Shown: in pieces, positions 11,030 through 49,872 of the stretch | Layout: the number at the start of each line of letters is the position of its first letter | Numbering within the stretch: the first letter of the stretch is position 1 | Source: Falsiroseomonas ponticola | Lineage (GTDB): Bacteria; Pseudomonadota; Alphaproteobacteria; Acetobacterales; Acetobacteraceae | DNA length: 64,000 bases | Direction of reading: 5' to 3' | NCBI RefSeq assembly: GCF_016805305.1 | Contig: NZ_JAERQN010000001.1 | Location: 620,001 to 684,000 of the forward strand | Position numbers and translations under genes: made by a program | The notes under the pieces: generated by a model | What the model was told of the DNA's origin: nothing | Seen by the model: the letters and a program-made list of their open reading frames with translations, nothing else | Databases searched by the model: none

Positions 11030-11084
11030 CGGGGAAGGCGTCGCCTTCCCCGAACCCCATCCACCAGGGGCGAGACGCCCCTGG
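11030..11084. repeat. Structured intergenic repeat, copy A (two hairpins)
   Basis: The short copy of the repeat family. Hairpin 1 pairs 11030-11040 with 11042-11052 (CGGGGAAGGCG type, tight loop). After a linker AACCCCATCCA, hairpin 2 pairs 11064-11072 (CCAGGGGCG) with 11076-11084 around loop AGA, and is followed by ACCGTCGTCA. It occupies the whole gap between two convergent genes, so it could terminate transcription from both sides. Confidence 0.85.
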
Positions 11085-11091
11085 ACCGTCG

Positions 11092-11355
11092 TCAGCCGCG
11101 GGTGACGGTGTCGCGGCGGGCGACCATGCGATAGACGACCAGGACGATGATGGCGCCGACCACCGCGCCGATCAGGCCCGCCCCCTCGCCGGCGCGATAC
11201 CAGCCGATCGCCTGGCCGAGCCACGTCGCCACCAGCGCACCGACGATGCCGAGCAGGATGGTGACGATGATGCCGCCGGGATCACGGCCGGGCATGATGA
11301 ACTTGGCGATCGCGCCCGCGATCAGCCCGATGATGATGGTCCAGATGAAACCCAT
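11092..11355 (-). CDS. GlsB/YeaQ/YmgE-family small membrane protein
   Basis: This 87-residue protein is almost wholly membrane-embedded, with three glycine-rich hydrophobic segments. The family signature is clear: MGFIWTIIIGLIAGAIAKFI, then MPGRDPGGIIVTILLGIVGA and a last segment ending VYRMVARR. GlsB/YeaQ/YmgE proteins are small inner-membrane proteins linked to stress and general stress regulons in other bacteria; the older name, transglycosylase-associated protein, does not imply enzymatic activity. The length fits the family (80-90). It stands alone on the minus strand between the repeat copy and the serine hydrolase gene. Confidence 0.9.
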   Translation of the reverse strand: MGFIWTIIIGLIAGAIAKFIMPGRDPGGIIVTILLGIVGALVATWLGQAIGWYRAGEGAGLIGAVVGAIIVLVVYRMVARRDTVTRG

Positions 11356-11424
11356 GGCGGCGCTCCTGCCTCTGCCGCGAGGTAAGCCACGGCAGAGGCC
11401 CGGGTTCCCGCCCTGTCGCGCTGT

Positions 11425-12705
11425 TCAGTTCAGCGCCTGGTAGGCCAGCGCGCGCAGCTGGAAGCGGAAGGGCAGCCGTGCCGTGGGGCTCTGCATCATC
11501 AGCACCACATACATCTCCTCCTTCGGATCGACCCAGAAATAGGTCCCGTGCGCCCCGCCCCAATAGGCATCGCCCGGGCTGCCCGGCAGCGGGTTGTGGC
11601 CCACCGTGTTGCGCACCGCGAAGCCCAGCCCGAAGCCCTGGCCCATCTCCGGCGTCGGCGCCAGCGGCCCGAAGCGGCCCTCCACCACGTCACGCGTCCG
11701 CGTGCCCGGCGGCAAATGGTCCGCCATCATGAGGTCGATCGTGGTCCGCGACACCAGCCGCGTGCCGTCCAGCTCCCCCTTGTTCAGCAGGAACTGGGAG
11801 AAGCGCGCATAGTCCCGCGCGGTGGAGACCATGCCGCCCGCGCCCGAATACCAGCCCGGCCGCTGCAGCGGGTTGGGCATCGAAGGCCGCTGCCCCGTCG
11901 CCGGATCCACCTGCGGATGCGCGAGGCGCTCCGCCGAACCCTCCGGCGCCACGAAGCCCGTATCCACCATGCCGAGCGGCCCGGTGATGCGGCTGCGCAC
12001 GAAGGTATCCAGGTCCTGGCCGCTGACGACCTCCACCAGGCGCCCGAGGATGTCGGTGGACCAGGAATACTCCCAGGTCGTGCCGGGCTGGTGCATCAGC
12101 GGCAGCGCGGCGACGCGGCGGCTCATCTCCTCCATCGAAATGCCGCGGTCCCGCGCGCCGGAAGCGCGATAGGCCGCCAGCACCGGATGGTCGCCCGGCG
12201 ATGAATCCGCGAGCCCCGAGGTGTGGCGCAGCAGGTCCTGGATGGTGATGGCGCGGCGCGCCGGCACCAGGGTCATCTGCCCGTCCCGCACCTCCGCCAC
12301 GCGCGGCGTCTCCCGCCATTCCGGCAGGTAGGTGCCGATGGGATAGGCGATGGACAGCCGCCCTTCCTCCGCCAGCATCATCACCGCCAGCGACACGATC
12401 GGCTTGGTCATGGAGGCGATGCGGAAGATGCTGTCGGGGCGCATCGGCGCCTGCGCCTCCCGGTCCCGGAAGCCGGCCGTCACCTCCTGCGCGATGCGGC
12501 CCTTGCGGCCGATGACGATGACGGCGCCGGGGATGAAGCCGCGCCGCACCTCCCCTTCCAGCCATTCGCCGAGGCGGGAGAGGCGTTCGCCGGAGAACCC
12601 CACCTCCTCGGCGCGCGAGGCGCGGGGCAGTTCGGCGGCGGTCACGGGCACGGCAAGGCCGGCCATCAGCCCGGCCGCGACGGCCAGGCGAAGCATGGGG
12701 CGCAT
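11425..12705 (-). CDS. Secreted serine hydrolase, beta-lactamase class C / esterase family
   Basis: This 426-residue protein has a signal peptide (MRPMLRLAVAAGLMAGLAVPVTAA) and a penicillin-binding-protein-like serine hydrolase fold. The catalytic SxxK motif is SMTK in FRIASMTKPIV near residue 95; LLRHTSGL and the Tyr-containing WEYSWSTDILGRLVE follow, with a late GGAHGTYFWVD in place of the KTG box. These fit the esterase/EstB or D-aminopeptidase-like branch better than a true beta-lactamase. The ATG at 12703-12705 has an ideal GGAGGAAA ribosome site; the 60-codon upstream extension is noise. The natural substrate is unknown. It is 70 bases downstream of the enolase-family gene and could be the operon's last gene. 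Confidence 0.88.
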   Translation of the reverse strand: MRPMLRLAVAAGLMAGLAVPVTAAELPRASRAEEVGFSGERLSRLGEWLEGEVRRGFIPGAVIVIGRKGRIAQEVTAGFRDREAQAPMRPDSIFRIASMTKPIVSLAVMMLAEEGRLSIAYPIGTYLPEWRETPRVAEVRDGQMTLVPARRAITIQDLLRHTSGLADSSPGDHPVLAAYRASGARDRGISMEEMSRRVAALPLMHQPGTTWEYSWSTDILGRLVEVVSGQDLDTFVRSRITGPLGMVDTGFVAPEGSAERLAHPQVDPATGQRPSMPNPLQRPGWYSGAGGMVSTARDYARFSQFLLNKGELDGTRLVSRTTIDLMMADHLPPGTRTRDVVEGRFGPLAPTPEMGQGFGLGFAVRNTVGHNPLPGSPGDAYWGGAHGTYFWVDPKEEMYVVLMMQSPTARLPFRFQLRALAYQALN

Positions 12706-12775
12706 GACATTTCCTCCAACGGCCCGCCTGTGGCGGCGGGTCCGGGGGAAGCCTCCGCCCACCGGGCCGGAACGG

Positions 12776-13990
12776 TCAAGCGCGGCGGAAGGCGGGGGCG
12801 CGGGGATGCCGCGGCTGCGCGTAGAGAGTCGCCTCCTCCGTCCCCTCCGGCCAGCCGCCGGCGGGCAGGCCGACATTGCGGACACTCGGATGCAGGGCCA
12901 CGAATGCCTCGTCGATATCGATGCCCAGCCCCGGCGCTTCCGGCACCATCAGATGGCCGTCGCGCAGTTCCGGCGTGGCGGTGACGCAGCGCGCGCGGCC
13001 TTCCCAGTCCGGGTCCATCTTCTCCAGGATCAGCGCGTTGGGGATGGCGGCCAGCACATGCAGCGCCGCGTATTCCGCGACGGGGCCGAGCGAGCCCGCA
13101 TGCGGCGCCACCGTCGCGAAACGGCTCTCGGCATGGATGGCGATCTTGCGCAGCCCCGTGATGCCGCCGCAGCGCCCCGCATCGGGCTGCACCACATCCA
13201 CCAGCCCCTCATGCAGCAGGGGCGCGATGCCCTGGAAGCCCGCATGGCGTTCGCCAGAAGCGAGCGGCACGTCGGTGGAACCGCGCAGCCGCCGGTAGCC
13301 CTCCAGATCCTCCGGCGCCAGCGGTTCCTCGACGAAGAGGGGCGAGAGCGGCGCCAGGGCGTGGCAGATGCCGATGGCGTCCGGCGCCGTCAGCCAGGGC
13401 GGACCATGGGCATCGATCATGATGTCCACGTCGTCGCCAACCGCGTCGCGGATCGCCGACGCCTTCGCCACCGGGTTCTTCACGCCCCCGGTCTTCAAGG
13501 CACGAAAACCCTTGGCGACGGCGGCGCGCGCCTGGTCGGGCGTGCTGGCATGGGCATAGGCGCGGATGCGGTCCCGCAGCCTGCCGCCCAGCAGCTGCCA
13601 CACCGGCACGCCCAGCGCCTTCCCCTTGATGTCCCACAGCGCCATGTCGATGGCGCCGATCGCGCCCTGCCCGACCACGCCGGACATGCCATGCCCCATC
13701 ATCGCGACGTTCATGCGCTGGGTCATGAGTTCGATGGCGAAGGCATCCTGCCCGATGACGACGGAAGACAGGTCGCGCACCGCGGCCTCCACCACGCGGG
13801 GCCAGCCGCTGCCCTCCCCGATGCCGGTGATGCCGTCCTCCGTCTCCACCTTCACGAACAGCCAGTTGCGCGTGCCCGTGGTGATGGAGTTGCGCACATC
13901 GGCGGCCCAGCCGGAGACGCCGAGCGGCCCCGCCTGCATGAGGAAGGTGCGGATGGCCGTGATGCGCGGGCCCTTGGTCAGGGAGGTCAT
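12776..13990 (-). CDS. Mandelate racemase / muconate lactonizing enzyme family dehydratase
   Basis: This 404-residue enolase-superfamily enzyme would abstract the alpha proton of a sugar acid or other carboxylate, usually dehydrating it. The N-terminal capping domain is followed by a TIM barrel with ligand motifs MIDAHG (Asp), FVEEPL (Glu), LASGERH (Glu), a candidate base lysine in ALKTGGVK, and PHAG with its histidine late in the barrel. This pattern suits the galactonate/gluconate dehydratase-like MR subgroup, but the substrate is not fixed by the motifs. Its ATG overlaps the stop of the Bug gene before it as ATGA, so translation is coupled. It is the last core gene of the GntR-led operon. 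Confidence 0.9.
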   Translation of the reverse strand: MTSLTKGPRITAIRTFLMQAGPLGVSGWAADVRNSITTGTRNWLFVKVETEDGITGIGEGSGWPRVVEAAVRDLSSVVIGQDAFAIELMTQRMNVAMMGHGMSGVVGQGAIGAIDMALWDIKGKALGVPVWQLLGGRLRDRIRAYAHASTPDQARAAVAKGFRALKTGGVKNPVAKASAIRDAVGDDVDIMIDAHGPPWLTAPDAIGICHALAPLSPLFVEEPLAPEDLEGYRRLRGSTDVPLASGERHAGFQGIAPLLHEGLVDVVQPDAGRCGGITGLRKIAIHAESRFATVAPHAGSLGPVAEYAALHVLAAIPNALILEKMDPDWEGRARCVTATPELRDGHLMVPEAPGLGIDIDEAFVALHPSVRNVGLPAGGWPEGTEEATLYAQPRHPRAPAFRRA

Positions 13991-14982
13991 TGTGCGGTGA
14001 TCCCGGCTTCGCGGATGACGCGGGTCCAGCGTTCCGTCTCCGCGGCGACGAAGCTGGCGAAATCGGCGGGGCTGGCGCTCGCGCGCGGCTCGATGCCGGC
14101 GCGGGCGAGCCCTTCGGTCAGGGCGGGGGTGCGCATCGCCTCCGTCACCGCCTCGAACCACCGTGCCTTCACGGCGGGCGGCCAGCCCGTGCGCATCATC
14201 ACCCCGTGCCAGGAGCTGATGAAGACCTCCGGCCCGAAGCCGGCCTCGGCGATGGCGGGGACGGAGGGCGCGGCAGGGATGCGCGCTTCCTGCATCACGG
14301 CGAGGCCCCTGATGCGGCCGCTGGCGACATTGCCGGGGATCGCGGCCTCCGCGACGGTGAAGGAGCAATCGACCTCCCCCTGCAGCAGCGCCTGCATGGA
14401 AGGCGCGCCGCCGCGGAAGGGCACATGGGTGAAGCGGAAGCCCGCCTGGCGGGAGAAGAGTTCCGCCGCGAGGTGGGAGGAGGTGCCGATGCCGCCGGAG
14501 GCGAAGTTCAGCTCCCCCGGCCGCGCGCGGCCCGCCGCCACCACATCCCGCACGCTGGCCAGGCCGCCCTTGAGGCTGGCCAGGAAATAGACCGGCACAT
14601 GGCCGGTCTGGGTCAGCATCTCGATATCCCGCGCCGGGTCGTAGCCCAGCGGCATCAGGGCGGGGTTGGCGGCCAGGTGGATGGCGGCGAAGCCGATGGC
14701 GTGGCCATCCGCCGGCATCCGCGCCAGCGCCTGGGTGGCGAGGTTGCCGGAGGCGCCCGTGCGGTTCTCCACCACCACGTTCTGGCCGAGCAGCGGCGCC
14801 AGCTCCCGCGCCAGCAGCCGGGCGACGTAGTCGATGACGCCGCCGGCGGGAAAGCCCACCAGGAAGGTGACGGCGCGGTCCGGCGACCAGCGCGCGGGCT
14901 GGCCGCGCGCCGGCAACGGGAGGGCCGGCAGGGCGAGGCCTGCCGAGGCCGCGCCCAGGGCGCGGCGCCTGGTGACGATCAT
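13987..14982 (-). CDS. TctC/Bug-family periplasmic receptor (second in operon)
   Basis: This 331-residue Bug receptor has the signal MIVTRRRALGAASAGLALPALPLPARGQ and family landmarks FLVGFPAGGVIDYVARLLAR, VVVENRTGASGNLATQ, FASGGIGTSSHLAAELF and FTHVPFRGGAPSMQALLQGE. It lies 22 bases downstream of the RraA-like gene and shares a 4-base ATGA overlap with the enolase gene. It is related to, but clearly diverged from, the other Bug gene in this operon; both end in the similar REAGIT sequence, which suggests an old duplication. It likely brings in, or senses, the carboxylate degraded by the operon. No TctAB genes are present. Confidence 0.92.
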   Translation of the reverse strand: MIVTRRRALGAASAGLALPALPLPARGQPARWSPDRAVTFLVGFPAGGVIDYVARLLARELAPLLGQNVVVENRTGASGNLATQALARMPADGHAIGFAAIHLAANPALMPLGYDPARDIEMLTQTGHVPVYFLASLKGGLASVRDVVAAGRARPGELNFASGGIGTSSHLAAELFSRQAGFRFTHVPFRGGAPSMQALLQGEVDCSFTVAEAAIPGNVASGRIRGLAVMQEARIPAAPSVPAIAEAGFGPEVFISSWHGVMMRTGWPPAVKARWFEAVTEAMRTPALTEGLARAGIEPRASASPADFASFVAAETERWTRVIREAGITAQ

Positions 14983-15004
14983 GCGTTCCCCCTCCGCCGG
15001 GCCT

Positions 15005-15760
15005 TCAGAAATAGCCGCCCTTGGCGCTGATCTCGGCGACGCTGTCGCCCTGCTCGATCCAGCCGAAGATGTCGCGTTCCAGCCCCAGGATCGCCTCCGC
15101 CCGTTCCAGCACGGGCAGGGCCAGGGCGCGCGGCACGATGATGACGCCGTCCATGTCGCCCACCACGATGTCGCCGGGATGGACGAGGACGCCGCCGATG
15201 CGCAGCGGCACCTGGTAGTGGGAGATCATGGCCCGGCCGAGCGCGGCGTTGGGGTGCCGGAAGCGGCAGAACAGCGGGAAATCCGCGTCCAGGATCTGGC
15301 GGATGTCCCGCGCGCCGCCATCGATCGCGGCGCCCCGCACGCCGCGCGCCTTGGCCGCCGCCGTCATCACCCCGCCCCAGGCCGTGCTGTCCTCCGCGCC
15401 CGAGCAGTCCCAGAGCACGAAGTCGCCCTCCCCCATCGCCTCCAGCATGGCGCTGCGCAGCGGCATCTCCCCGGTCAGCAGCGTGTGCGGCTGGCTCTTC
15501 ACCGTGAAGGCGAAACCGGCGGCGCAGCGTGTCTCCGCCCGCAGCGGCTGGATGCGGTGGGGCAGCGCCTGGTCCATCAGCCGGTGCTCGCGCAGCACGT
15601 CGCTGATGGCGCCGGTGTAGAGCCGCTCATACCGCGCCAGCAGCCCGGCCGGCGGCACGGGCAGGGGCGAGAGGGCGCGCGCCTCCCGCTCCTCCACCAG
15701 CCAGTCGAGCTTCATGGCCTTCACCTCGGCGCGGAGCCGGGCGGCGGGGTCGCCGCTCAT
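15005..15760 (-). CDS. RraA-like protein (HMG/CHA aldolase family)
   Basis: This 251-residue protein belongs to the RraA/4-hydroxy-4-methyl-2-oxoglutarate aldolase superfamily. It has YTGAISDVLREH near the N-terminus, the core GGVMTAAAKARGVRGAAIDGGARD with the catalytic Arg/Asp region, and GDIVVGDMDGVIIVPRALA near the C-terminus. Compared with the 160-residue RNase E regulator RraA it carries N- and C-terminal extensions usual for catabolic homologues. Such enzymes do retro-aldol cleavage or oxaloacetate decarboxylation with a divalent metal. Sitting between two Bug receptors and under a GntR regulator, it is most likely a catabolic aldolase, not an RNase regulator. Its ATG overlaps the preceding stop as ATGA. 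Confidence 0.88.
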   Translation of the reverse strand: MSGDPAARLRAEVKAMKLDWLVEEREARALSPLPVPPAGLLARYERLYTGAISDVLREHRLMDQALPHRIQPLRAETRCAAGFAFTVKSQPHTLLTGEMPLRSAMLEAMGEGDFVLWDCSGAEDSTAWGGVMTAAAKARGVRGAAIDGGARDIRQILDADFPLFCRFRHPNAALGRAMISHYQVPLRIGGVLVHPGDIVVGDMDGVIIVPRALALPVLERAEAILGLERDIFGWIEQGDSVAEISAKGGYF

Positions 15761-16740
15761 GTCACGGTGATCCCGGCCTCGCGGATCAGCGTCGTCCAGC
15801 GCTGCAGCTCCGCGCGGTACAGCGCCTCGAAGGCGGCGGGATCGGCGCTCTCGGCCGGCTCGATCGCCAGCGCCTTCATGCGGGACTGGAATTCGGCGGA
15901 GCGCACGGCGGCGCGCGTCGCCTCATGCAGCGCGGCGATGGCGGCGGGCGGCGCGCCGGCCTTCACGCAGATCCCCTGCCAGGACCGCATCATCGCGGCT
16001 TCCGGCAGCCCGGCCTCGCCGAAGGACCGCACCTCCGGCAGCCCCTCCGCCCGGCGCTGCTGCATCACGCCCAGCATGCGGATGCGCCCTTCCGCCGCCG
16101 CCGGCGCCTGGTAGCTGGCGACCAGGTCGAACATCATCTCCGTATCGCCGCTCATCAGCGCCTGGAAGGCGGGCGCGCCGCCGCGATACTGCACCGCCTC
16201 GAACTTTCCCGAGATGGCCCGGAACAGCAGCTCCGCGCCGAGGTGGGAGGAGGTGCCGACCCCCGCCGTGCCGATGGTCACGCCCGGGCCGCGGGCGCGC
16301 GCCACCGCCTCCTCGATGCTGGTGATGCCGGATCGCGCGCTGGCCATGACGACGACGGGCAGCGCCGTCAGCTGCCCCACCATGGCCAGGTCCCGCGCCG
16401 GATCGTAGCCGAGCTGCGGGATGAGGCCGGGATTGGTGACGAGCTGCAGCCCCGCCAGGGCCAGCGTCAGCCCATCCGCCGGCGCCTGCACCACCGCCTG
16501 CGTCGCGATGTTGCCGGAGGCGCCGGGCCGGTTCTCCACCACCACGGTCTGGCGCAGCGCGCGGCCCATCTCGGCGGCGGCCAGCCGCGCCACCAGGTCG
16601 GCCGCGCCGCCCGGCGCGAAGCCCACCACCAGGCGCAGCGGGCGCTCGGGCCAGGATTGCGCGCCGGCGATCCCGGGCAGGGCCAGGGACGTGGCCAGGG
16701 AAGCGGCGAGCGCGGTGCGGCGGGTGATGCCCGTCATCAT
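15757..16740 (-). CDS. TctC/Bug-family periplasmic receptor (first in operon)
   Basis: This 327-residue receptor has the signal MMTGITRRTALAASLATSLA ending at GAQ, then LRLVVGFAPGGAADLVARLAA, VVVENRPGASGNIATQ, GTAGVGTSSHLGAELLF and QYRGGAPAFQALMSGD, all characteristic of Bug proteins. I chose the first of two adjacent ATG codons (16738-16740) because it overlaps the GntR stop as ATGA and AAGGAA lies upstream. Its own stop overlaps the RraA-like start the same way. Being directly behind the regulator suggests that its ligand is the inducer or the substrate of the pathway; this is inference. Confidence 0.92.
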   Translation of the reverse strand: MMTGITRRTALAASLATSLALPGIAGAQSWPERPLRLVVGFAPGGAADLVARLAAAEMGRALRQTVVVENRPGASGNIATQAVVQAPADGLTLALAGLQLVTNPGLIPQLGYDPARDLAMVGQLTALPVVVMASARSGITSIEEAVARARGPGVTIGTAGVGTSSHLGAELLFRAISGKFEAVQYRGGAPAFQALMSGDTEMMFDLVASYQAPAAAEGRIRMLGVMQQRRAEGLPEVRSFGEAGLPEAAMMRSWQGICVKAGAPPAAIAALHEATRAAVRSAEFQSRMKALAIEPAESADPAAFEALYRAELQRWTTLIREAGITVT

Positions 16741-17396
16741 CGGTTTCCTTCCTCGAGGCGCGCGATCAGGTCGCGCTTGGCCGCCATGGCATGGGCGAAG
16801 GCCGCGGCGGCGGCGGCCTCCGGCTGCCGGGCCGCGATGGCGGCCAGGATGGCGCGGTGCTGCGCGGCGGCCTCCGCCATCCGCGCCTGGCCGAAGCCGA
16901 GGCGCAGCCGCACCGCATTCACGAAGGCGCTGCGCGCCTTGTAGAGGGCGGTCGCCTGCGGGTTGTCCGCCGCTTCCTCCAGCGCGTCGTGGAAGGCCTC
17001 GTTGGCGGCCAGCGCCGCGGCGGCATCGCCGGCTTCGGCCGCGGCGGCATAGGCGGCCTCGTGCCGCGCCATGGCGGCGATCTGCGGGGCCGTCGCTCGT
17101 TCGGCCGCGCGGCGCGCCAGCAGGGACTGCAGCGCGCCACGCAGGTCGTAGAGGTCGGCGAAGAGCTTGGCATCCAGCACCGGCACCACGGCGCCGCGAT
17201 GCTGGCGGATCTCGACCAGCCCCTCCCCCTCCAGCGCCAGCAGCGCCTCCCGCACCGGGGACATGGAGACGCCGTGCTCCGCGGCCAGCGCGCCGAGGGT
17301 GCGGTGCGTGCCGGGCGCCCAGGCGCCGCCCAGGATATCGGCCCGCAGGCGGTCCCGCAGGCGGGCATAGGCGGGGGTGGAGAGCGGTTCGGCCAT
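16737..17396 (-). CDS. GntR-family regulator (FadR/FCD subfamily)
   Basis: This 219-residue transcription factor has an N-terminal winged helix (residues 1-75: LRDRLRADILGGAWAPG, LAAEHGVSMSPVREALLALE, GLVEIRQHRGAVV) and an all-helical FCD effector domain with the metal-ligand-type pattern DLRGALQSLLARRAAE, NEAFHDALEEAADN and AAQHRAILAAI. Such regulators usually repress the adjacent catabolic operon until an organic acid binds. It is the first gene of the five-gene operon and divergent from aroE, so it probably binds the AT-rich dyad just upstream of its own start and controls itself. Confidence 0.93.
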   Translation of the reverse strand: MAEPLSTPAYARLRDRLRADILGGAWAPGTHRTLGALAAEHGVSMSPVREALLALEGEGLVEIRQHRGAVVPVLDAKLFADLYDLRGALQSLLARRAAERATAPQIAAMARHEAAYAAAAEAGDAAAALAANEAFHDALEEAADNPQATALYKARSAFVNAVRLRLGFGQARMAEAAAQHRAILAAIAARQPEAAAAAAFAHAMAAKRDLIARLEEGNR

Positions 17397-17408
17397 GGGT
17401 TGATTCTG

Positions 17409-23635: not shown

Positions 23636-24399
23636 GCAAGGACGCCATCCTCGGCGCCATCCGCCGCGGGCTGAAGCGCGGCCCGCTGCCGGCCGACCAG
23701 CGCGCCATGCTGGAAGGGCGCCTCGCCACCCATCCGCGCCACCTGATCCCCGCCCGGTCCCGCCTGCCGCGGCCCGACCAGGTCGCGCTCTTCATCCGCA
23801 ACGTGGAGAAGGAATTCGGCACGGTGGAACGCGTGCCGGACCTGGCCGCCATCCCCGCCGCGGTGGCGGATTTCCTCGCTGCGCAGAACCTGCCCGCCCG
23901 CCTGGTCGTGGCGCCGCACCCCGAACTCGCCTCCATCGACTGGTCCGCCCGCCCGATGATCGAGCGCGAGGCACGCCGCGCGCGGGATGGCGACGTCGTC
24001 TCCCTCCAGCATGGCTGGGCCGGGGTGGCGGAGACGGGAACGATCCTCTTCCCTTCCGACCCTGTCCGCCCCGCGACGCTGAACCTGCTGCCGGAGACGG
24101 AGATCGTGGTGCTCCGCGCCTCCGCCGTGGTCGGCGCCTATGAGGAGGCCTGGGACCGCCTGCGGGCAGAGCGGCAGGACCCGACGACCGGCGGCTTCAT
24201 GCCGCGCAACCTGATGTTCGTGACCGGCCCGTCGCGCAGCGCCGATATCGAGCAGACGCTGGAACTCGGCGCCCACGGCCCCCGCCGCCTGCATGTGCTG
24301 CTGGTGGAGGACGAACCCGCCCCCCGCATGGCGACCCCCGCGGAGGCGCGGGCGGAGGCGCCCGTCCAACCCGGCCAGCCCGCCGCACCGGGGGACTGA
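23632..24399 (+). CDS. lutC: L-lactate utilisation protein LutC (LUD domain)
   Basis: This 255-residue protein is the LUD-domain subunit of the LutABC lactate-oxidising complex. Visible are MSKDAILGAIRRGL at the N-terminus and, in the LUD core, SLQHGWAGVAETGTILFPSD, LNLLPETEIVVLRASAVVGA and FVTGPSRSADIEQTLELGAHGPRRLHVLL, the last being the family's most conserved block. The C-terminal 30 residues are an Ala/Pro tail not usual in the family. Start and stop are well defined: the ATG overlaps the small ORF stop, and the smr gene begins nine bases after its end. Confidence 0.93.
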   Translation: MSKDAILGAIRRGLKRGPLPADQRAMLEGRLATHPRHLIPARSRLPRPDQVALFIRNVEKEFGTVERVPDLAAIPAAVADFLAAQNLPARLVVAPHPELASIDWSARPMIEREARRARDGDVVSLQHGWAGVAETGTILFPSDPVRPATLNLLPETEIVVLRASAVVGAYEEAWDRLRAERQDPTTGGFMPRNLMFVTGPSRSADIEQTLELGAHGPRRLHVLLVEDEPAPRMATPAEARAEAPVQPGQPAAPGD

Positions 24400-24973: not shown

Positions 24974-25107
24974 CCGGGGAAGGCGCTGCCTTCCCCGGAC
25001 CCCATCCGCCAGGGGGGAGACCCCCCTGGACCATCGTCAATTTGAGACGGTCCAGGGGCGGTTCGCCCCTGGCGTGGGGGGCATCGGGGGGAGCAGCGCT
25101 CCCCCCG
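24974..25107. repeat. Structured intergenic repeat, copy B (four hairpins)
   Basis: Four successive perfect hairpins: 24974-24984/24988-24998 (loop GCT), 25009-25017/25021-25029 (loop AGA), 25052-25060/25064-25072 (loop GTT) and 25085-25094/25098-25107 (loop AGC). Linkers CCCCATCCG and ACCATCGTCA match the other copies. The last arm ends eight bases before the XRE gene's ATG, so the element also forms that gene's leader and may hide its ribosome site. Confidence 0.9.
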
Positions 25108-41636: not shown

Positions 41637-41638
41637 TT

Positions 41639-41820
41639 CCGGGGGAACGCTGTTCCCCCGGACCCCCATGCCAGGGTCCAACGGGACCCTGGACCGCGGG
41701 CATAACGACGAAGGGGGAGGGGGCACTTCGGCCCCCTCCCCCTTCGTCGTTGTATCTCATGGGTTCCCAAGGGCCCGCTGGCCCTTGGCGGGGGGTGCAG
41801 GGGGGCAGCGCCCCCCTGCA
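41639..41820. repeat. Structured intergenic repeat, copy C (five hairpins)
   Basis: Five perfect hairpins: 41639-41648/41652-41661 (loop GCT), 41671-41679/41684-41692, a 21-bp stem 41704-41724/41731-41751 with six-base loop, 41767-41775/41780-41788 and 41796-41806/41810-41820 (loop AGC). The order and outer stems match copies B and D, while the long central stem is special to this copy. It fills the gap between two convergent genes and may terminate both. Confidence 0.9.
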
Positions 41821-41831
41821 AGCAACCCGCG

Positions 41832-43291: not shown

Positions 43292-44369
43292 CCTTCTCCT
43301 TCTGCCCCCGGCCCCTCTGGGCGGCCTCATCCAGGCGCCCATAGGCCGCGACGATCCGTGCCACGAGGGGATGCCTTACCACATCCCGTTCCGCAAATCG
43401 CGCCACCGCGATGCCATCCACCCCATCAAGAATCGACAGGGCCTCGGCAAGCCCGGATTTCTGCCCGGGCGGCAGGTCGATCTGGGTGGGGTCGCCGGTC
43501 ACCACCATCCGGCTGCCATGCCCCATGCGCGTCAGGAACATCTTCATCTGGGCCGGCGTGGTGTTCTGCGCCTCGTCCAGGATGGCGTAGCAATGGGCCA
43601 GCGTCCGGCCGCGCATGAAGGCCAGCGGCGCGACCTCGATCTCCCCCGCCTCGATCCGGCGCTTCACCTGTTCGGCCGGCATCATGTCGTGCAGCGCGTC
43701 ATAGAGGGGGCGGAGATAGGGATCGACCTTCTCCTTCATGTCGCCGGGCAGGAAGCCCAGGCGCTCCCCCGCCTCCACCGCCGGGCGCGACAGCACGATG
43801 CGGTCCACGCGCCCGGCCTGGAGCAGCGCCACGCCCTGTGCCACGGCGAGATAGGTCTTGCCGGTGCCGGCGGGGCCGATGCCGAAGACCATGTCGTTGC
43901 GGGCCAGCATGTCGATATAGGCGGCCTGGGCGGGGGTGCGGGGCGCGATGGCGCCCTTCCGCGTCCGGATCGCCGGGATGTCCTGCAGCGGCAGGCGCGG
44001 ATCGGCTTCCTGCACGCCCTCGGCCATCCGCATCGCCGCCTCCACCTCCGCCGAACCCACGGCCTCGCCCTTCTGCAATCGTCGCCACAGCGCGCCCAGC
44101 GCCGCTTCCGCCACTTCCGTCCGCTCCGGCGTCCCCGTCACGGTCAGCCGGTTGCCCCGGCTGTTCAGCCTGATACCCAGCCGGACCTCGATCCGCGCCA
44201 GGTTGCGGTCATGCTCCCCGTAGAGGAGCGGGACCAGCGCATTGTCGTCGAACTGCATCGTGACGACGCGCTGGGCGGGCTGGTCGGCGGAGGCGAGGCG
44301 CTGTCGCGCGACGGGCTCGGCGACCCGGCCGGGGGGGAGGATGGAAAGCGCGGCGGGCGTTGTGTTCAA
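43275..44369 (-). CDS. phoH: PhoH-like ATPase
   Basis: This 364-residue PhoH/YbeZ-type ATPase has an N-terminal KH-like region (about 45-90, [15 protein letters not shown]), then the P-loop [17 protein letters not shown] near residues 160-176, [16 protein letters not shown] and Walker [18 protein letters not shown] with GDPTQIDLP. YbeZ works with YbeY on rRNA or RNA turnover. The TTG at 44367-44369 overlaps the miaB stop as TTGA; the first ATG in frame would be at MQFDDN, 37 codons later, so the exact start is uncertain. Confidence 0.93.
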
Positions 44370-45814
44370 GCGGCGGCCTTCTCCTGACAGGGGGGTTGGG
44401 GGCTGCTCTCGGGCGGTCCGTTCCCCGCGGGCCGCTCAAGGGAAGGGGGGGCAAGGGGACGCACGGAAAGGGAGTTGGGGTGGGCGGCCAGGATCTCCAC
44501 CGCCACCAGGTCGCCAGGCTGCTGGCCCCCGCCCTCGAAATGCACGGGCTGGAGCCAGGGCGACCGCGCCGCGAGCTGGCCGGGATGCCGGGCGGGCCCG
44601 GTCACCAGCACCTCGCAGTGTCGCCCCACGCAGGAACGATTGAACCCGTCCTGCTGTTCCCGCAGCAGCGCCTGGATTTCCTGCAGGCGGCGGTCCTTCT
44701 CGGCCTCCGGCACCTGCATGGTCGCCCCCGCGGCCGGCGTGCCGGGGCGGGGCGAATACTTGAAGGAATAGGCGAGCGCGAAGCCGACATCGCGGATCAG
44801 CGCCATGGTCGCCTGGTGGTCGGCCTCGCTCTCCCCGGGATGGCCGGCGATGAAGTCGGAGGAGAGGGCGATGTCCGGCCGCGCCGCGCGCAGCTTCTCC
44901 GCGATCCGCCGGTATTCATCCGCCTTGTGGCCGCGATTCATGGCCTGGAGGATGCGGTCCGAGCCCGACTGCACCGGCAGGTGCAGGAAGGGCATCAGGG
45001 CCGGGATCTCCCCATGGGCGGCGATCAGCTCGTCATCCATGTCGCGGGGGTGGCTGGTGGTGTAGCGCAGCCGGGCCACGCCCTCGATCCCGGCCAGCTC
45101 CCGCAGCAGCCGGGCCAGGTTCCAGGTCTTCCCGTCCAGCCCCTCGCCATGCCAGGCATTCACGTTCTGGCCGAGCAGCGCGATCTCCCGGCTCCCCTGG
45201 GCGGCGAGGCGCCGCGCCTCCGCGATGATGGTGGCGGCGGAGCGCGAGTATTCGGACCCGCGCGTGTAGGGGACGACGCAGAAGGAGCAGAACTTGTCGC
45301 AGCCTTCCTGGATGGTCAGGAAGGCGGTCACGCCCTGCGGCGTCGTGCTGTCCGGCAGGAAGTCGAATTTTTCTTCCGCTGGGAAATCCGTCTCGATCAC
45401 CGCGCCGGCCGCCCGCGTCGCGCGGGCCACCATCTCCGGCAGGCGATGATAGGTCTGCGGGCCGAGCACGAGGTCCACGTAAGGCGCGCGGGCCGTGATC
45501 TCCGCCCCCTCCGCCTGCGCCACGCAGCCGGCGACGGCCAGGATCATGCGGTCGCCCCCCTGTTCCTTCGCCTGCTTCAGCACGCGCAGCCGGCCGAGCT
45601 CGGAGAACAGCTTCTCCGACGCCTTCTCCCGGATATGGCAGGTGTTCAGCACCACCATGTCGGCGTCTTCCGGCGCCTCCGCCGGCGCATAGCCGAGGGG
45701 GGCCAGCACATCCGCCATGCGGGCGCTGTCATAGACATTCATCTGGCAGCCCCAGGTGCGGATGAAGAGCCGCTTCAGGGGGCGAGAGCTGGGGGCGTTC
45801 ACCGGTGAAAACAC
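44366..45814 (-). CDS. miaB: tRNA-2-methylthio-N6-dimethylallyladenosine synthase MiaB
   Basis: This 482-residue radical-SAM enzyme adds the methylthio group to i6A37 of tRNAs. The UPF0004 domain starts [20 protein letters not shown] with its three cluster cysteines; the radical-SAM motif [15 protein letters not shown] is near residue 170; a TRAM domain lies at about 375-440. The C-terminal 30 residues are a Pro/Ser extension. The start is GTG at 45812-45814. It leads the phoH-ybeY-corC run, with plsC 156 bases upstream in the same direction. Confidence 0.96.
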
Positions 45815-45970
45815 TCCGCCGCCCCGCCGGGCAGACGGCGGGGGGAAGCGGGGGATGTGCGCAGGCGCCGCGCCCGGGTCAAGCGACCCGAGGCGCCGCG
45901 CTGTCCGAAGGACATGCGGCCGGAGGGATGATCGCCATGCCGGCAGGCTGCGGGACGCCGCCGCGCCGGG

Positions 45971-46894
45971 TCAAGCGGGAATGCGGGCACGCAGCGGCAC
46001 GACGGGCCGGTTCTGCCGCATGGTGGCGCAGGCCCGCGCGATCACCGCCGAACAGGCGGCCGCCAGGGCCTTGCGGTCCGGGTAGTCCGCGGGGTCCACG
46101 GGATCATGCAGCACGATCGTCGCCCGCCCGCCGGGGTGGCGCGCCAGGCGCCAGAAATGGGTGAAGATGTCGGTATCCCCGTACCAGGCGAACAGCGGCC
46201 GGTCCCGCCGGCAGGCCGGCAGGCCGCCCAGCCGGTCGAACACCACGGAAACCGGCTGCACCTGCCGCGCATGGTCCGCGACCGAGAGGAAGGCGCTGCG
46301 GAAGGGCAGCACGCGGCCGCCATCGCTGGTCGTGCCCTCCGGGAACAGGATCACGCTGTCCCCCTGGCCCATGCGTTCGCGGATCACGCCAGCCTCCCCC
46401 TTCGTCGCCGTGCGGGTGCGGCTGACGAAGAGCGTGCGCCCCAGCCGCGCGACGGTGCGGATCAGCGGCCATTGCCCGACCTCCGCCTTCGCCACGAAGC
46501 AGGCATCGAGCGTGGTGCCCAGCGCCAGCACGTCGAGCCAGGAGGAATGGTTGGAGACGAAAAGCACCGGCGCCTGGCGCGATGCCTCCCCCACCACCCG
46601 CACCTTCATGCCGATCAGCCAGCACAGCACGCGGAAATAGACCTGCCCGAAGGCGACATTGGCGCGCCCCGGCAGCACCAGCAGCAGCGCCTGGATCGGG
46701 ATGGCGATGACCGTCCAAAGCAGGATCGTCACCAGGCGGCGGGAGGCGCGGAACCGCCCGCCAAGGCGTCGGAACCCCAGCACATCCCCCCACAACCCCT
46801 CGGGATCGGCGGAGGAGAACTGGATCGGGGACTTCCGGAGCAGGCGGCGGGGCCGCAGCGCGTCGGAAGCGGTCAGGCGGGCGGTGGCTTCCAT
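45971..46894 (-). CDS. plsC: 1-acyl-sn-glycerol-3-phosphate acyltransferase (PlsC family)
   Basis: This 307-residue membrane-associated acyltransferase makes phosphatidic acid from lysophosphatidate. A hydrophobic anchor (LVTILLWTVIAIPIQALLLV near residues 54-73) precedes the HX4D motif SNHSSWLDVL and the FPEGTTSDGG motif, with DRLGG and a later WRLA region as in the family. It is the first gene of the plsC-miaB-phoH-ybeY-corC series typical of alphaproteobacteria. The 156-base gap to miaB contains two short inverted repeats, such as CGGGTCAAGCGACCCG near 45886, but no ORF. Confidence 0.92.
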   Translation of the reverse strand: MEATARLTASDALRPRRLLRKSPIQFSSADPEGLWGDVLGFRRLGGRFRASRRLVTILLWTVIAIPIQALLLVLPGRANVAFGQVYFRVLCWLIGMKVRVVGEASRQAPVLFVSNHSSWLDVLALGTTLDACFVAKAEVGQWPLIRTVARLGRTLFVSRTRTATKGEAGVIRERMGQGDSVILFPEGTTSDGGRVLPFRSAFLSVADHARQVQPVSVVFDRLGGLPACRRDRPLFAWYGDTDIFTHFWRLARHPGGRATIVLHDPVDPADYPDRKALAAACSAVIARACATMRQNRPVVPLRARIPA

Positions 46895-47139
46895 GGGCGG
46901 GGATTAACGCCGCGATCCGCGACATGGCAATGAAAGCCGCGCGACCATCGCGTGACGATTGGTTGCACCGCCGGTGGCGGGAAGCGGCGCCATGTGAAGA
47001 CCGACGCGCGACCCCTTGGCGGGGAACAAATCACCCCGTGCCGGTTGCGCATTGTGCCGGGCACAAGGACTCGCGTTGTGCGAAGGCCCCGGGCGAGGCA
47101 GGGTGGGGCATGGACCGAACCCGCGAAAAGGCCACCACC

Positions 47140-48114
47140 ATGCTGCCTCGCCGCTCCCTGCTCGGCGCCGGCCTCGCCGCGCCCTTCCTGGCGACCCCGG
47201 CGCGCGCCCAGGCCCCCTGGTCGCCCGACCGGCCCGTGCGCCTCATCGTCCCCTTCGCCCCGGGCGGCAGCCAGGACGTGCTCGGCCGCCTCTTCGCCCA
47301 GGCGGTGTCGCAGTCCGTCGGCCAGAACATGGTGATCGAGAACCGCGCCGGCGCCGGCGGCATCATCGGCGCGCAGGAAACCGCGCGCGCCGCGCCGGAT
47401 GGCCTGACCCTGCTGCTGGCCACCGCCGGGCAGCTCACCATCGCCAAGGCGGTCGGCCGCCGGCTCGCCTATGACCCGGTGGCCGATTTCGCCCCCATCA
47501 TCCACCTCTCCGACAGCCCCGTGGCGCTGGCCACGGCGCCCAGCCTGCCGGTGAACAACACGCGGGAGCTGATCGCCTACTGCAAGGCCGCCCGCACGCC
47601 CGTCCCCTACGGCTCCACCGGCATCGGCACCAACACCCACCTGATCATGGAAGACCTGAAGGCGCGGGAGGGGCTGAATGTCGAGCACATCCCCTATCGC
47701 GGCGCCGCCGCCGCCTTCAACGACCTGGCGGCGGGGCGGATCGGGCTGATGTTCATCTCCGTCGCCTCCGTCCTGGCCGTCTCCGGCGCGCAGATGAAGG
47801 TGCTCGGCGTCTCGTCGCGCGAACGCTTCCCCCCCACCCCGGACGTGCCGACCCTGATCGAGGGCGGGCTCGCGGCGTTCGAGGCCTCCATCTGGACCGG
47901 CATCGCCGCCCCGGCCGCGACGCCGGCGCCGATCGTGGAGCGCTGGCGCGCCGAATTCGCCAAGGCGCTGGAGACGGACCTCGTGAAATCCCGCCTGCCC
48001 GCGCTGGGCTCCACCGCCAATGGCAGCGGCCCGGCCGAATTCGGCCGCCTGCTGCGCGAAGACCTGGAGCGCTGGACCCGCGTCGCGGCGCCGCTCTCCA
48101 TCTCGCTGGAGTAG
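47140..48114 (+). CDS. TctC/Bug-family periplasmic receptor
   Basis: This 324-residue receptor has a signal peptide (MLPRRSLLGAGLAAPFLATP ending ARAQ) and Bug hallmarks: VRLIVPFAPGGSQDVLGRL, MVIENRAGAGGIIGAQETA, YGSTGIGTNTHLIMEDL and EHIPYRGAAAAFNDLAAG. The ATG at 47140 was chosen over the one at 47110 because it opens directly with the arginine-containing signal; both are possible. It is divergent from plsC and ends nine bases before an opine-dehydrogenase-like gene, so the receptor probably serves that enzyme's substrate. No TctAB genes are present. Confidence 0.9.
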   Translation: MLPRRSLLGAGLAAPFLATPARAQAPWSPDRPVRLIVPFAPGGSQDVLGRLFAQAVSQSVGQNMVIENRAGAGGIIGAQETARAAPDGLTLLLATAGQLTIAKAVGRRLAYDPVADFAPIIHLSDSPVALATAPSLPVNNTRELIAYCKAARTPVPYGSTGIGTNTHLIMEDLKAREGLNVEHIPYRGAAAAFNDLAAGRIGLMFISVASVLAVSGAQMKVLGVSSRERFPPTPDVPTLIEGGLAAFEASIWTGIAAPAATPAPIVERWRAEFAKALETDLVKSRLPALGSTANGSGPAEFGRLLREDLERWTRVAAPLSISLE

Positions 48115-48123
48115 GCCGCGCCC

Positions 48124-49173
48124 ATGCGCTTGGCCGTGCTGGGTGCGGGGTCGGTCGGGCCGGGGGCGGCGGCGCTGGCCGTCAGCCGCGGCCATTCCGT
48201 GGCGCTCTGGTCCCCCCGCGGCGGCGGCACCCATGGCATCGGCGCGAGCCTGCGGGTGGAGGGCATCATCGCTGGCACCGCCCGCGTCGATGTCGCCGTC
48301 GATGTCTCCCGCGCGCTCTGGCAGGCGGAGGCGGTGCTGGTCTCCGTCCCGCCCCACGCGCTCGGCCCCGTGCTGCGGCGCGTCGCGCCCATGCTGCATG
48401 ACGGCGTGCCGGTGCTGCTGGCGCCGAGCCATTCCCTCGCCGCGCTGCTGCTGGACCGGCTGCTGGCGAGCCTCGGCCGCGGCGCGCCGATCGGCGCCAT
48501 GGCGACGCCGCCGCTGCAGGCGGTGCGGGAAGCCGGCGACCTGGTCCGCATCACCGCCTTGCGGGAGGGGGTGGAGATCGCCGCCGTCCCCGCCGCCGCG
48601 GCATCCGGCCTGGCGCGGCTGGCCGCCGACCTCTTCGGCATCCCCTTCCGCCCGCTGCCCGATGCGGTGGGCGCGGCGCTGGCCAACCACGACGCCGTGC
48701 TCCAGGCCGCGCTCGCCATCGCCAATGCCACGCGGATCGAGGGCGCGGAGCCCTGGGACATCCATGAACGCCTGACCCCCGCCGTCTGCCGCCTGGCGGA
48801 GCGGCTGGATGCGGAGCGCCTGCACCTCGCCCACGCGCTGGGCCATGCCATCACGCCCCTGCCCACCGCGCTGGCGCGCGCCCATGGGCTGGAGGAAGCG
48901 CCGCTGTCCCGCCTGGCGGCCGCGCTGGCCGCGAAGGCGCCCGCCCCCGGCCCGCTGGGGCTGGACGCCACCCACCTGGCGGAGAGCGTGACCTATGGCC
49001 TGGCGCTGTGGCTGCGCCTGGCGGAGGCGCGGGGCCTGGCGATGCCGCTGACCGCCGCGGCGGTGTCGGTGCTGGAAGCGCTGTGGGGCAGCGCGCTGTC
49101 GGGCGATGACCTGCTGGAGGGGCTGGACCTGGCGCAGCTGCCCACCCTGATGCGGGACGGGCATCCGCGGTAG
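48124..49173 (+). CDS. NAD(P)-dependent opine-dehydrogenase-like protein, paralog 2
   Basis: This 349-residue protein matches the gene at 26417-27481 along its whole length: the opening GAGSVGPGAAALAVSRGH (residues 7-24), SPRGGGTHGIGASLRVEGII, PIGAMATPPLQAV, and a C-terminal region with SVTYGLALWLRLAEARGLAM and AVSVLEALWGSALSGDD. The paralog has the corresponding DVPFGLSFYLALAGDTPMPV and TALEALWGRDLRAN. The expected activity is reductive amine formation or its reverse. It is nine bases behind the Bug receptor gene and should be translated from the same mRNA. Confidence 0.82.
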   Translation: MRLAVLGAGSVGPGAAALAVSRGHSVALWSPRGGGTHGIGASLRVEGIIAGTARVDVAVDVSRALWQAEAVLVSVPPHALGPVLRRVAPMLHDGVPVLLAPSHSLAALLLDRLLASLGRGAPIGAMATPPLQAVREAGDLVRITALREGVEIAAVPAAAASGLARLAADLFGIPFRPLPDAVGAALANHDAVLQAALAIANATRIEGAEPWDIHERLTPAVCRLAERLDAERLHLAHALGHAITPLPTALARAHGLEEAPLSRLAAALAAKAPAPGPLGLDATHLAESVTYGLALWLRLAEARGLAMPLTAAAVSVLEALWGSALSGDDLLEGLDLAQLPTLMRDGHPR

Positions 49174-49183
49174 CGGGAGGGCC

Positions 49184-49591
49184 TCACCGCCCCATCGACA
49201 GGCACTGCCCCCCGCTGCAGACGCCGGAATAGCCGCCGGAGCGATAGCCGGTGACGCGGTTGTTGAGCGCGCCGGAGCAGGCGATGCCGGGGTTGGCCAG
49301 GCAGTTCCGCTGGCCACCCGCCGCCCCCCCGCCGGTTGCCGGCTGCGCCGCGGCGAAGGCGCCGTTCACCTGGGTGATGAGCTGCGCCTGGGCGGCGCTG
49401 ACGCGCTGCATCGACCGCGTCATCCCATCCACGAAGATGTATTCGCCGCCGATCTCCTCGCAGAGCGAGCCGCCGCTGGCCGGCAGCGCCGTGCAGCGCC
49501 CGAGCTGCGCGTTCTGCACATACTGCCCGCAGGCCGCGAGGTTGACGGAGGCGGCGAGGGTCAGGCCGGCGAGGGTGAGGAAGCGGGGCAT
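49184..49591 (-). CDS. Cysteine-rich putative lipoprotein
   Basis: This 135-residue exported protein has a signal with a lipobox-like end (TLAASVNLAAC, Cys at residue 21), so it may be lipid-anchored. Four to five further cysteines are distributed through the protein (GRCTAL, SLCEEI, RNCLANPGIACSGAL, VCSGGQCLS), enough for two disulfides in the periplasm. A Gly/Ala-rich linker lies in the middle. I do not recognise the family. It converges on the opine-dehydrogenase gene with a 10-base gap. Confidence 0.7.
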   Translation of the reverse strand: MPRFLTLAGLTLAASVNLAACGQYVQNAQLGRCTALPASGGSLCEEIGGEYIFVDGMTRSMQRVSAAQAQLITQVNGAFAAAQPATGGGAAGGQRNCLANPGIACSGALNNRVTGYRSGGYSGVCSGGQCLSMGR

Positions 49592-49690
49592 CGGCGGGGC
49601 TCCTTGCTGGGATTGGCTGGCAAGGCGGAGTGAAGCCCGGCCGGGCGCCGTTCCGGTGTTCCCGGGGTGACAGGACGGGCGCGGCTCGAT

Positions 49691-49872
49691 GCGGGGAAGG
49701 CGCTGCCTTCCCCGCGCCCCATCCGCCAGGCCCGAGACGGGCCTGGACCGTCATCAGCTTGATATTGAACCAAAACCTCCCGGTCCAGGGTCCGGCTGGA
49801 CCCTGGCGGGGGTTGCAGGGGGGCGGAGCCCCCCTGCGGGCTATGGTTGGTGCAGGGGGCAGCGCCCCCTGC
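49691..49872. repeat. Structured intergenic repeat, copy D (five hairpins)
   Basis: Five perfect hairpins: 49691-49701/49705-49715 (loop GCT), 49726-49734/49738-49746 (loop AGA), 49785-49793/49798-49806, 49815-49824/49828-49837 (loop GGA) and 49852-49860/49864-49872 (loop AGC). The linker ACCGTCATCA after hairpin 2 matches copies A and B. The last arm ends two bases before the gshB stop codon on the minus strand, so the element is the gshB 3' end. Confidence 0.9.

What the first reader, a model, noticed from the sequence alone, without database searches (positions are those of the whole stretch)
11030..49872. A family of multi-hairpin intergenic repeats with co-varying stems
Four intergenic elements (11030-11084, 24974-25107, 41639-41820, 49691-49872) share one plan: hairpin 1 (GGGGAAGGC or GGGGGAAC type), a CCCCATCC-like linker, a CCAGG...CCTGG hairpin followed by ACC(G/A)TC(G/A)TCA, then, in the longer copies, further CCAGG/CCAAG...CCTGG/CTTGG and GCAGGGGG...CCCCCTGC-type hairpins. 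Arms differ between copies but always change on both sides (for example CCAGGGGCG, CCAGGGGGG, CCAGGCCCG, CCAGGGTCC with their exact complements), while loops such as AGA, GCT and AGC are kept. That is evidence for selected RNA or DNA structure, not mere homology. They sit directly at gene 3' ends. A new REP-like or terminator family is likely.
Basis: partly seen in the sequence, partly recalled or inferred. Interest (0 to 1): 0.8.

Follow-up and report, generated by a model that had tools for sequence, protein, structure and literature searches.

The report
Triple-helix-forming DNA repeats at gene ends
These short hairpin repeats, scattered in well over a hundred copies at gene ends in a group of bacteria, carry a third stretch that matches each hairpin as a triple helix would require, which suggests that evolution keeps a three-stranded DNA shape there.

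Summary
The four elements belong to a family with at least 146 model matches (121 sites) in this Falsiroseomonas-like genome and relatives in 36 of 102 sampled genera of its family. The linker after hairpin 1 is the parallel complement (mirror image) of the hairpin arm, as an intrastrand triple helix requires. Over 90 distinct arm/linker combinations the match is 0.90 in register against 0.63 shuffled (z 19), and nearly lost one base out of register. The linker's last base covaries with the middle base of the hairpin loop (C/G 233, T/A 28, exceptions 5 of 266). Opposite A-T pairs the third strand uses A and T equally, which fits the DNA-only purine motif on the complementary strand. Hairpin 2 shows a weaker version. 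Elements abut stop codons (median 6 nt), mostly between convergent or same-direction genes, rarely with a T-tract, without clear strand bias. No RAYT domain was found in ten carrier genomes. The closest known kind is the PIT/BoxC intrastrand triplex repeat; this is a two-hairpin variant with another strand order and evolutionary evidence for the third strand. Function and spread remain inferred.

The parts
11029..11053 (+). Element 1, hairpin 1: TC-GGGGAAGGC gtc GCCTTCCCC-GA
11055..11063 (+). Element 1, third-strand linker CCCCATCC-A (parallel complement of GGGGAAGG; last A matches the T in the middle of loop gtc)
11064..11084 (+). Element 1, hairpin 2: CCAGGGGCG aga CGCCCCTGG
11085..11094 (+). 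Element 1, tail ACCGTCGTCA; last TCA is the stop codon of the convergent minus-strand gene called at 11092-11355
24974..24998 (+). Element 2, first half, hairpin 1
25000..25008 (+). Element 2, first half, third-strand linker CCCCATCC-G
25009..25029 (+). Element 2, first half, hairpin 2; tail ACCATCGTCA 25030-25039
25052..25072 (-). Element 2, second (inverted) half, hairpin 2
25073..25084 (-). Element 2, second half, linker ATG-CCCCCCACG (arm GGGGGGAGC)
25085..25107 (-). Element 2, second half, hairpin 1 (CGGGGGGAGC gct GCTCCCCCCG)
41638..41662 (+). Element 3, first half, hairpin 1 (TCCGGGGGAAC gct GTTCCCCCGGA)
41663..41670 (+). Element 3, third-strand linker CCCCCATG (arm GGGGGAAC)
41671..41692 (+). 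Element 3, hairpin 2 (CCAGGGTCC aacg GGACCCTGG), tail ACCGCGGGC
41704..41751 (.). Element 3, central 21-bp hairpin; inside the cassette that is inverted in F. algicola
41767..41788 (-). Element 3, second (inverted) half, hairpin 2 (CCAAGGGCC agcg GGCCCTTGG on the minus strand)
41789..41795 (-). Element 3, second half, linker CCCCCCG
41796..41820 (-). Element 3, second half, hairpin 1 (TGCAGGGGGGC gct GCCCCCCTGCA)
49691..49715 (+). Element 4, first half, hairpin 1
49717..49725 (+). Element 4, third-strand linker CCCCATCC-G
49726..49746 (+). Element 4, hairpin 2 (CCAGGCCCG aga CGGGCCTGG), tail 49747-49756
49785..49806 (-). Element 4, second (inverted) half, hairpin 2 (CCAGGGTCC agcc GGACCCTGG)
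49807..49814 (-). Element 4, second half, linker AACCCCCG (one C short of a full match to the arm)
49815..49837 (-). Element 4, second half, hairpin 1 (GCAGGGGGGC tcc GCCCCCCTGC)
49852..49872 (.). Element 4, extra hairpin GCAGGGGGC agc GCCCCCTGC with no hairpin 2 of its own

Best explanation
These are dispersed DNA elements selected for an intrastrand triple helix, placed at gene ends. Each unit is two hairpins in a row. After hairpin 1 (purine arm, 3-nt loop, pyrimidine arm) comes a linker, usually 6-12 nt, that is the mirror image of the pyrimidine arm. On the complementary strand this reads as reverse-Hoogsteen strand, purine arm, pyrimidine arm (class I, purine motif: G.G-C, A.A-T, T.A-T). 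The strand can fold so that the third stretch lies in the groove of the hairpin and its end pairs with the middle base of the loop. Hairpin 2 has a shorter, weaker version of the same (tail tracks CCAGG/CCAAGG, tail pairs with the loop). SHOWN by covariation: stems, third-strand match, loop contact; shown by mapping: position at stop codons, inverted pairing of units. INFERRED: that the fold forms in the cell, probably transiently when the strand is single (replication, supercoiling behind or between converging polymerases), and that it serves as a two-way boundary at the junction of two genes: a supercoil sink or polymerase obstacle that needs no strand orientation and is tolerated only outside coding sequence. 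Copies spread by an unknown route without RAYT and are rewritten module by module. My confidence is about 0.75 in the selected DNA triplex and about 0.35 in the boundary role.
For: Mirror match: 0.914 vs 0.657 shuffled in the first set (53 unique combinations, the shortest left out), z 14; 0.899 vs 0.634 over 90 combinations, z 19.2, neighbouring registers 0.54 and 0.58 with z 1.8 and 3.0; 35 distinct arms z 12, own genome alone 13 arms 0.987 vs 0.62, 20 arms from other genera z 8.2. Opposite G: C in 466 of 499; opposite A: T 62, A 59 of 131, as the purine motif allows. Loop-linker pair: 261 of 266 C/G or T/A; it switched jointly in 4 of 4 orthologous pairs with a switch, at 3 own sites. Triple changes at one site: +1 base in all three strands of element 3 in relative G013; in L212 vs L062 an arm G-C to A-T change goes with the linker C to T. 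91 of 99 types have 6 or more triads counted from the loop (one mismatch allowed), and 90 of these 91 have a spacer of 0-5 nt. Tail of hairpin 2: z 8.1; loop 2-tail pairing z 4.9. Gene ends: 31 convergent, 27 codirectional, 3 divergent, 2 at stretch edges, of 63 sites; none inside a gene; median 6 nt to a stop codon. A relaxed BoxC/PIT pattern occurs in the same genome, 12 against 0 for the reversed pattern.
Against: No physical measurement was made here and I found none for this family. For the related E. coli TM_ECO, in-vivo DMS footprinting gave no support for a stable triplex, and PIT elements showed no promoter or terminator activity (PMC4666352). The two bases outside the triplex part also pair and covary, which leaves little spacer unless they open. 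In R. acroporae the match is weaker (8 arms, 0.814 vs 0.627, 6 of 5000 shuffles reach it). The third strand of hairpin 2 is only 3-4 bases in most copies, and other readings of the tail also score (parallel register 3 z 4.8, antiparallel register 4 z 7.1). In element 2 the plain fold pairs the two halves with each other. Combinations are not phylogenetically independent, and many loci were fetched with patterns or models that contain the type A linker. The boundary role rests on position alone.
Confidence: 0.55

Rival explanations
1. Selfish structure-recognised repeat (MITE/REP-like): the fold is kept because an unknown enzyme that copies or moves the element must recognise it; gene ends are only where insertions survive.
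Against: No RAYT/Y1 domain in 10 of 10 carrier genomes (other transposases were not searched); the type A core has 0 matches in viral contigs and element 2 has none in plasmids; units at orthologous positions mostly keep compensated stems, though some are decayed or truncated (L082). No target duplication was established: one clear empty site only.
Confidence: 0.3
2. RNA-level element: either strand's transcript ends in stable hairpins that terminate transcription (with Rho or otherwise) or shield the 3' end; the third strand would be a pyrimidine-motif RNA triplex (C+.G-C, U.A-U).
For: Position right after stop codons, often filling the gap between two convergent stops; near-symmetric hairpins would serve both directions; pyrimidine-motif triplexes can form in RNA (stated in PMC4666352).
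Against: T-tracts are rare (2 of 266 after hairpin 2; 21 of 266 after hairpin 1 on the other strand); the third-strand base opposite A-U is A about as often as U (59 vs 62), and A.A-U is not a canonical pyrimidine-motif triad; single elements between codirectional genes lie either way (7 same, 13 opposite). Related PIT elements had no terminator activity (as cited in PMC4666352).
Confidence: 0.2
3. No selection on shape: palindromes are perfected by hairpin-templated repair (quasipalindrome template switching, recalled) and modules are shuffled by gene conversion among the many copies, which gives two-sided changes without function.
For: No half-changed pair among 32 hairpin 2 changes in the filtered orthologous set, flank identity 78-95%, and few among 130 cores; many changes are CG to GC flips. 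This looks like wholesale rewriting rather than slow compensation.
Against: Template switching copies antiparallel complements; it cannot make the linker follow the arm as a mirror image, nor tie loop base to linker base.
Confidence: 0.1

Closest known systems
PIT / BoxC / TM_ECO intrastrand triplex repeats (Holder et al. 2015, PMC4666352; Hoyne and Maher, cited there)
   Same: Dispersed intergenic GC-rich repeats in which a hairpin and a third strand match as purine-motif triads; a short spacer before the third strand; inverted A+B pairs; both strand orientations; no known mover.
   Different: Strand order is class I (third strand, purine arm, pyrimidine arm), not TM_ECO's class II; two consecutive hairpins per unit with a tail; loop-third strand base pair; many arm types that covary with the linker; strong placement at stop codons, whereas TM_ECO was reported more often upstream of ORFs and at no fixed distance. 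A relaxed TM_ECO pattern also occurs in this genome (12 matches).
REP/BIME elements with RAYT
   Same: Short extragenic palindromes, many copies, inverted pairs, gene 3' ends.
   Different: No GTAG tag in the type A consensus, no RAYT in ten carriers, mirror-image linker.
CGTC-tagged REPs of alphaproteobacteria (PMC3733652)
   Same: Alphaproteobacterial palindromes with no known transposase, often paired; CGTC occurs in the tail ACCGTC.
   Different: First stem pairs, loop and tag position do not fit; that paper reports CGTC REPs as missing in Acetobacteraceae.
H-DNA mirror repeats
   Same: Linker plus right arm is a mirror repeat of a purine/pyrimidine tract.
   Different: Here the tract is joined to a palindromic arm, so a single strand alone can form the triplex.

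Membership tests
Intrastrand triplex, class I purine motif (definition of PMC4666352) | Three stems of 6-15 nt in order RH-R-Y, loops 1-6 nt, triads AAT/GGC/TAT, at most one mismatch | tested here: met
   Type A on the complementary strand: GGATGGGG, 3 nt, GGGGAAGG, 5 nt, CCTTCCCC; all 8 triads canonical (sequences, judged by eye against the rule). Wider set.
Intrastrand triplex, class I purine motif (definition of PMC4666352) | Triplex forms in vitro (CD, NMR) | not testable with these tools
TM_ECO (BoxC) sequence family | CCCTCNCCC N3-6 GGGNGAGGG N3 GGGNGAGGG | tested here: not met
   The window elements have another strand order and sequence; a relaxed form of the pattern occurs elsewhere in the genome, 12 times
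REP with RAYT | Y1 transposase (PF01797) in the genome | tested here: not met
   0 of 10 genomes; 5 of 14 controls positive
REP with RAYT | GTAG tag at one end | tested here: not met
   Type A consensus ends in ACCGTCGTCA; no GTAG in it (ten copies)
CGTC REP | 8-9 bp stem starting with A-T pairs, 4-5 nt loop, CGTC at one end, CCA at the other (PMC3733652) | tested here: not met
   Stem 2 is about 9 bp but starts CCAGG or CCAAG, loops are mostly 3-4 nt, CGTC lies 2 nt off the stem
Intrinsic terminator | T-rich tract right after the stem | tested here: not met
   2 of 266 after hairpin 2, 21 of 266 on the other strand; elements 3 and 4 not flagged
MITE / insertion element | Target site duplication at filled versus empty sites | tested here: inconclusive
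   One clear empty site; no duplication could be assigned
Rfam RNA family | Match at gathering score | tested here: not met
   Only a tRNA in the window; element 4 has sub-threshold hits only

The most novel reading that the evidence does not exclude
This is the first evolutionary (covariation) evidence that a DNA intrastrand triple helix is kept by selection in living cells: a two-hairpin 'triplex pseudoknot' repeat in which three strands and a loop contact evolve together, used as punctuation at gene ends. 'First' rests only on the paper searches (open-licence PMC papers).
Probability: 0.5. Interest if true: 0.88.

Novelty: new variant of a known kind. Interest (0 to 1): 0.74.

Why it matters
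Whether bacterial intrastrand triplex repeats ever form or matter in the cell has stayed open: in-vitro data are good, while in-vivo footprints and reporter tests in E. coli were negative as reported in PMC4666352. A family with many copies in which arm, partner arm, third strand and loop change together gives natural mutants and natural rescues. The question can now be tested by changing only the linker, then restoring the match by changing the arms.

Tried and rejected
Rfam gathering scan of the window: only a tRNA; lax scan of element 4: two sub-threshold hits, judged chance. Plasmid search with element 2 (distant mode): no match. Viral contig scan with the type A core pattern: 0. RAYT as mover: 0 of 10 genomes. 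Ordinary antiparallel pairing of linker with arm: 0.547 vs 0.505 shuffled (sd 0.013), above chance but far below the parallel reading. Flip of the hairpin 2 inner part as cause of two-sided changes: rejected by reasoning, since a flip would change only the loop. Replication-strand bias: only looked at by eye from hit strands (48 plus and 48 minus single sites), no polarity seen, not tested formally. Class search with R2: 2 of 240 genomes, the own genome and G085; G085 (L157) shows the same plan. The search tool scored only 22-150 candidates per genome, so copy numbers are lower bounds and weak relatives may be missed.

Limits: genes were called by a home-made codon-usage caller, not checked against annotation. 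Orthologous comparisons used loci fetched mostly because they carry the type A core, so presence at orthologous sites is over-counted. One search gives 23 pairs but several share one own site, so its counts are not independent, and its filter (8 of 11 and 7 of 9 paired) leaves out strongly decayed copies, without that filter, shows that half-changed stems do occur (for example L111, L106, L133). G000 is 29 contigs with 6.83% contamination. Dropped rows: one element with an aberrant arm (L087) was left out of alignment A3 (50 listed, 49 aligned); one search kept 266 of 293 scanned places (3-nt loop 1, fitting tail); one stretch (L213) gave no site for because it lies at a contig end. The clade split rests on locus numbers sorted by hand.

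Full report
WHAT WAS CHECKED. The window has 30 hairpins with stems of 9 bp or more, against 8-15 in five simulated windows. The core unit reads NN-GGGGAAGGC-gct-GCCTTCCCC-NN, n, CCCCATCC-R, CCAGG-nnnn-aga-nnnn-CCTGG, ACCGTCGTCA. The second half of elements 2-4 is the same plan inverted, with other arms. In ten copies from this genome the stems pair in 99.5% of cells, with 21 two-sided changes against 7.2 expected from shuffles.

FAMILY SIZE. A covariance model of ten type A copies (R1) finds 135 places at E<=1 in the own genome. A broader model from 49 diverse copies (R2) finds 146 at E<=0.001 with only 150 candidates scored, so this is a lower bound. They form 121 sites. Of these, 25 hold two units, always plus then minus, so the tails face each other. 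R1 matches 21 of 59 genomes in a sample of genus, family and class that includes the own genome. R2 matches 41 of 120 genomes and 36 of 102 genera of the family, own included, but only 2 of 240 in the class sample, one of them the own genome. Contig lengths indicate that G004 is F. stagni DSM 19981, G012 F. algicola PeD5 and G013 the MAG D4_MAG_00010, so the window's genus is Falsiroseomonas or its GTDB equivalent (inference).

THE THIRD STRAND. Across arm types, the linker is the parallel complement of the left arm of hairpin 1, which is the mirror image of the right arm. Examples: GGGGAAGGC/CCCCATCCG, GGGGAGGGC/CCCCACCCG, GGAGAGGGC/CCTCACCCG, GAGAGGGGC/CTCTCCCCG, AAGGAGGGC/ATCCTCCCG, GGGGGAAC/CCCCCATG, GAGGGGGAC/CTCCCCCTG. 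In 90 unique combinations the match (G to C, A to T or A, C to G) is 0.899 against 0.634 when linkers are shuffled among arms (z 19.2). One base out of register it is 0.54 and 0.58 (z 1.8 and 3.0). With one linker per distinct arm and the loop-proximal base left out, 35 arms give z 12. The own genome alone gives 0.987 against 0.62 (13 arms), other genera 0.905 against 0.624 (20 arms), R. acroporae a weaker 0.814 against 0.627 (8 arms). Among 548 hairpins (both strands counted) in 362 kb of this genome, 96 are followed by a mirror third strand, against 21 +/- 4 when downstream sequences are shuffled; most of this sequence was fetched around elements. No copying mechanism known to me makes mirror images, so this points to selection on a three-stranded shape.

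DNA OR RNA, WHICH STRAND. Opposite G the linker has C in 466 of 499 cases; opposite A it has T 62 and A 59 of 131. Read on the complementary strand this is the antiparallel purine motif, where A.A-T and T.A-T are both canonical. Read on the given strand it would be the pyrimidine motif, where A opposite A-T is a mismatch. Purine-motif triplexes are stated not to form in RNA (PMC4666352). The pattern therefore favours DNA.

LOOP CONTACT. The middle base of loop 1 and the last linker base are C/G in 233 and T/A in 28 of 266 elements, with 5 exceptions. In type A the flanking loop bases vary within both groups. In orthologous pairs the two bases switched jointly in 4 of 4 pairs that show a switch, at 3 own sites. 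This fits the end of the third strand pairing with the loop. The tail of hairpin 2 behaves likewise but more weakly: parallel register 2 z 8.1, with an antiparallel register at z 7.1 and parallel register 3 at z 4.8; pairing of loop 2 with tail bases 3-7 z 4.9.

ORTHOLOGOUS SITES. In 23 orthologous pairs of type A units (flank identity 78-95%; 8 of 11 and 7 of 9 paired required), hairpin 2 changed at 32 base pairs, every time on both sides and paired in both. Hairpin 1 changed at 17, of which 10 compensated and 7 broken. Without that filter, 121 of 130 type A cores have a perfect hairpin 2, 8 a near-perfect one and 1 is broken. At element 3 the D4_MAG copy has one more base in all three strands. 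In F. algicola the inner cassette of element 3 is inverted (alignment score 264 direct, 369.5 after inversion). At element 2 half or all of the unit is replaced by another type in F. algicola and F. stagni, and it is absent in D4_MAG. One site filled here (C23:205811) is empty in D4_MAG, where the two convergent genes almost touch. So positions are partly stable while modules are rewritten; the rarity of half-changed pairs suggests replacement or hairpin-templated repair rather than slow compensation.

POSITION. Of 63 sites in 60 stretches drawn at random from 116 sites, plus the window, 31 lie between convergent genes, 27 between codirectional genes, 3 between divergent genes and 2 at stretch edges. 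Element-free gaps of 60 bp or more in the same DNA are 12, 49 and 45. The median distance to a stop codon is 6 nt (91 distances). Single units between codirectional genes point either way, 7 same and 13 opposite. Genes come from a home-made caller.

WHAT IT IS NOT. No RAYT domain in 10 of 10 carrier genomes; T-tracts in 2 of 266 after hairpin 2 and 21 of 266 on the other strand; no Rfam family at gathering score; no viral contig with the type A core.

NEAREST KNOWN KIND. PMC4666352 (abstract, introduction, part of methods, four result sections and first part of the discussion read) describes intrastrand triplex repeats (BoxC = PIT = TM_ECO): GC-rich, intergenic, some in inverted A+B pairs, triplex in vitro by CD and NMR, no stable triplex by in-vivo footprint, no terminator activity in earlier work. 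A relaxed TM_ECO pattern occurs 12 times in the own genome and in 11 of the 12 genomes of the genus in that search, 0 for the reversed pattern; at one orthologous place a BoxC-like hairpin stands where this genome has our element (L093). The window elements share the principle but have class I strand order, a second hairpin with tail, the loop contact and the stop-codon placement. PMC3733652 (abstract and passages) covers CGTC REPs, which it reports missing from Acetobacteraceae and whose rules are not met. Paper searches that listed no description of this family: (open-licence PMC papers only; listings, not full texts).

VERDICT. A real, new variant of a known kind, with unusually direct evolutionary support for a third DNA strand. 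Structure is the strong part; function as a two-way boundary at gene ends and the route of spread are inference.

Noticed in passing
L144 versus window 41671-41788: The inner cassette of element 3 (hairpin 2, central hairpin, opposite hairpin 2) is inverted in F. algicola relative to this genome, between the outer hairpins.
   Followed up: partly
window 11085-11094 and similar tails: The consensus tail ends in TCA, which serves as the stop codon (TGA) of the convergent gene in element 1; many other sites end within a few nt of a stop.
   Followed up: partly
G000, 12 places listed (for example C3:163621): BoxC/TM_ECO-type class II triplex repeats coexist in this genome and genus.
   Followed up: partly
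L137, opposite strand, near base 2888 of the reverse complement: Clean empty site for element C23:205811: convergent genes with nearly touching stop codons.
   Followed up: partly
L157:1501-1563: One unit of the same plan in a genome of another alphaproteobacterial family (G085).
   Followed up: partly
G000 C2:159354, C6:16761, C11:337210 (L208, L215, L226): Larger composites of about 220 bp: two inverted units around a long central hairpin, with the two kinds of half in either order.
   Followed up: no
window 24295-24389: ARAGORN reports a tRNA with a four-base anticodon (ccgc) inside a called gene; probably a false positive.
   Followed up: no
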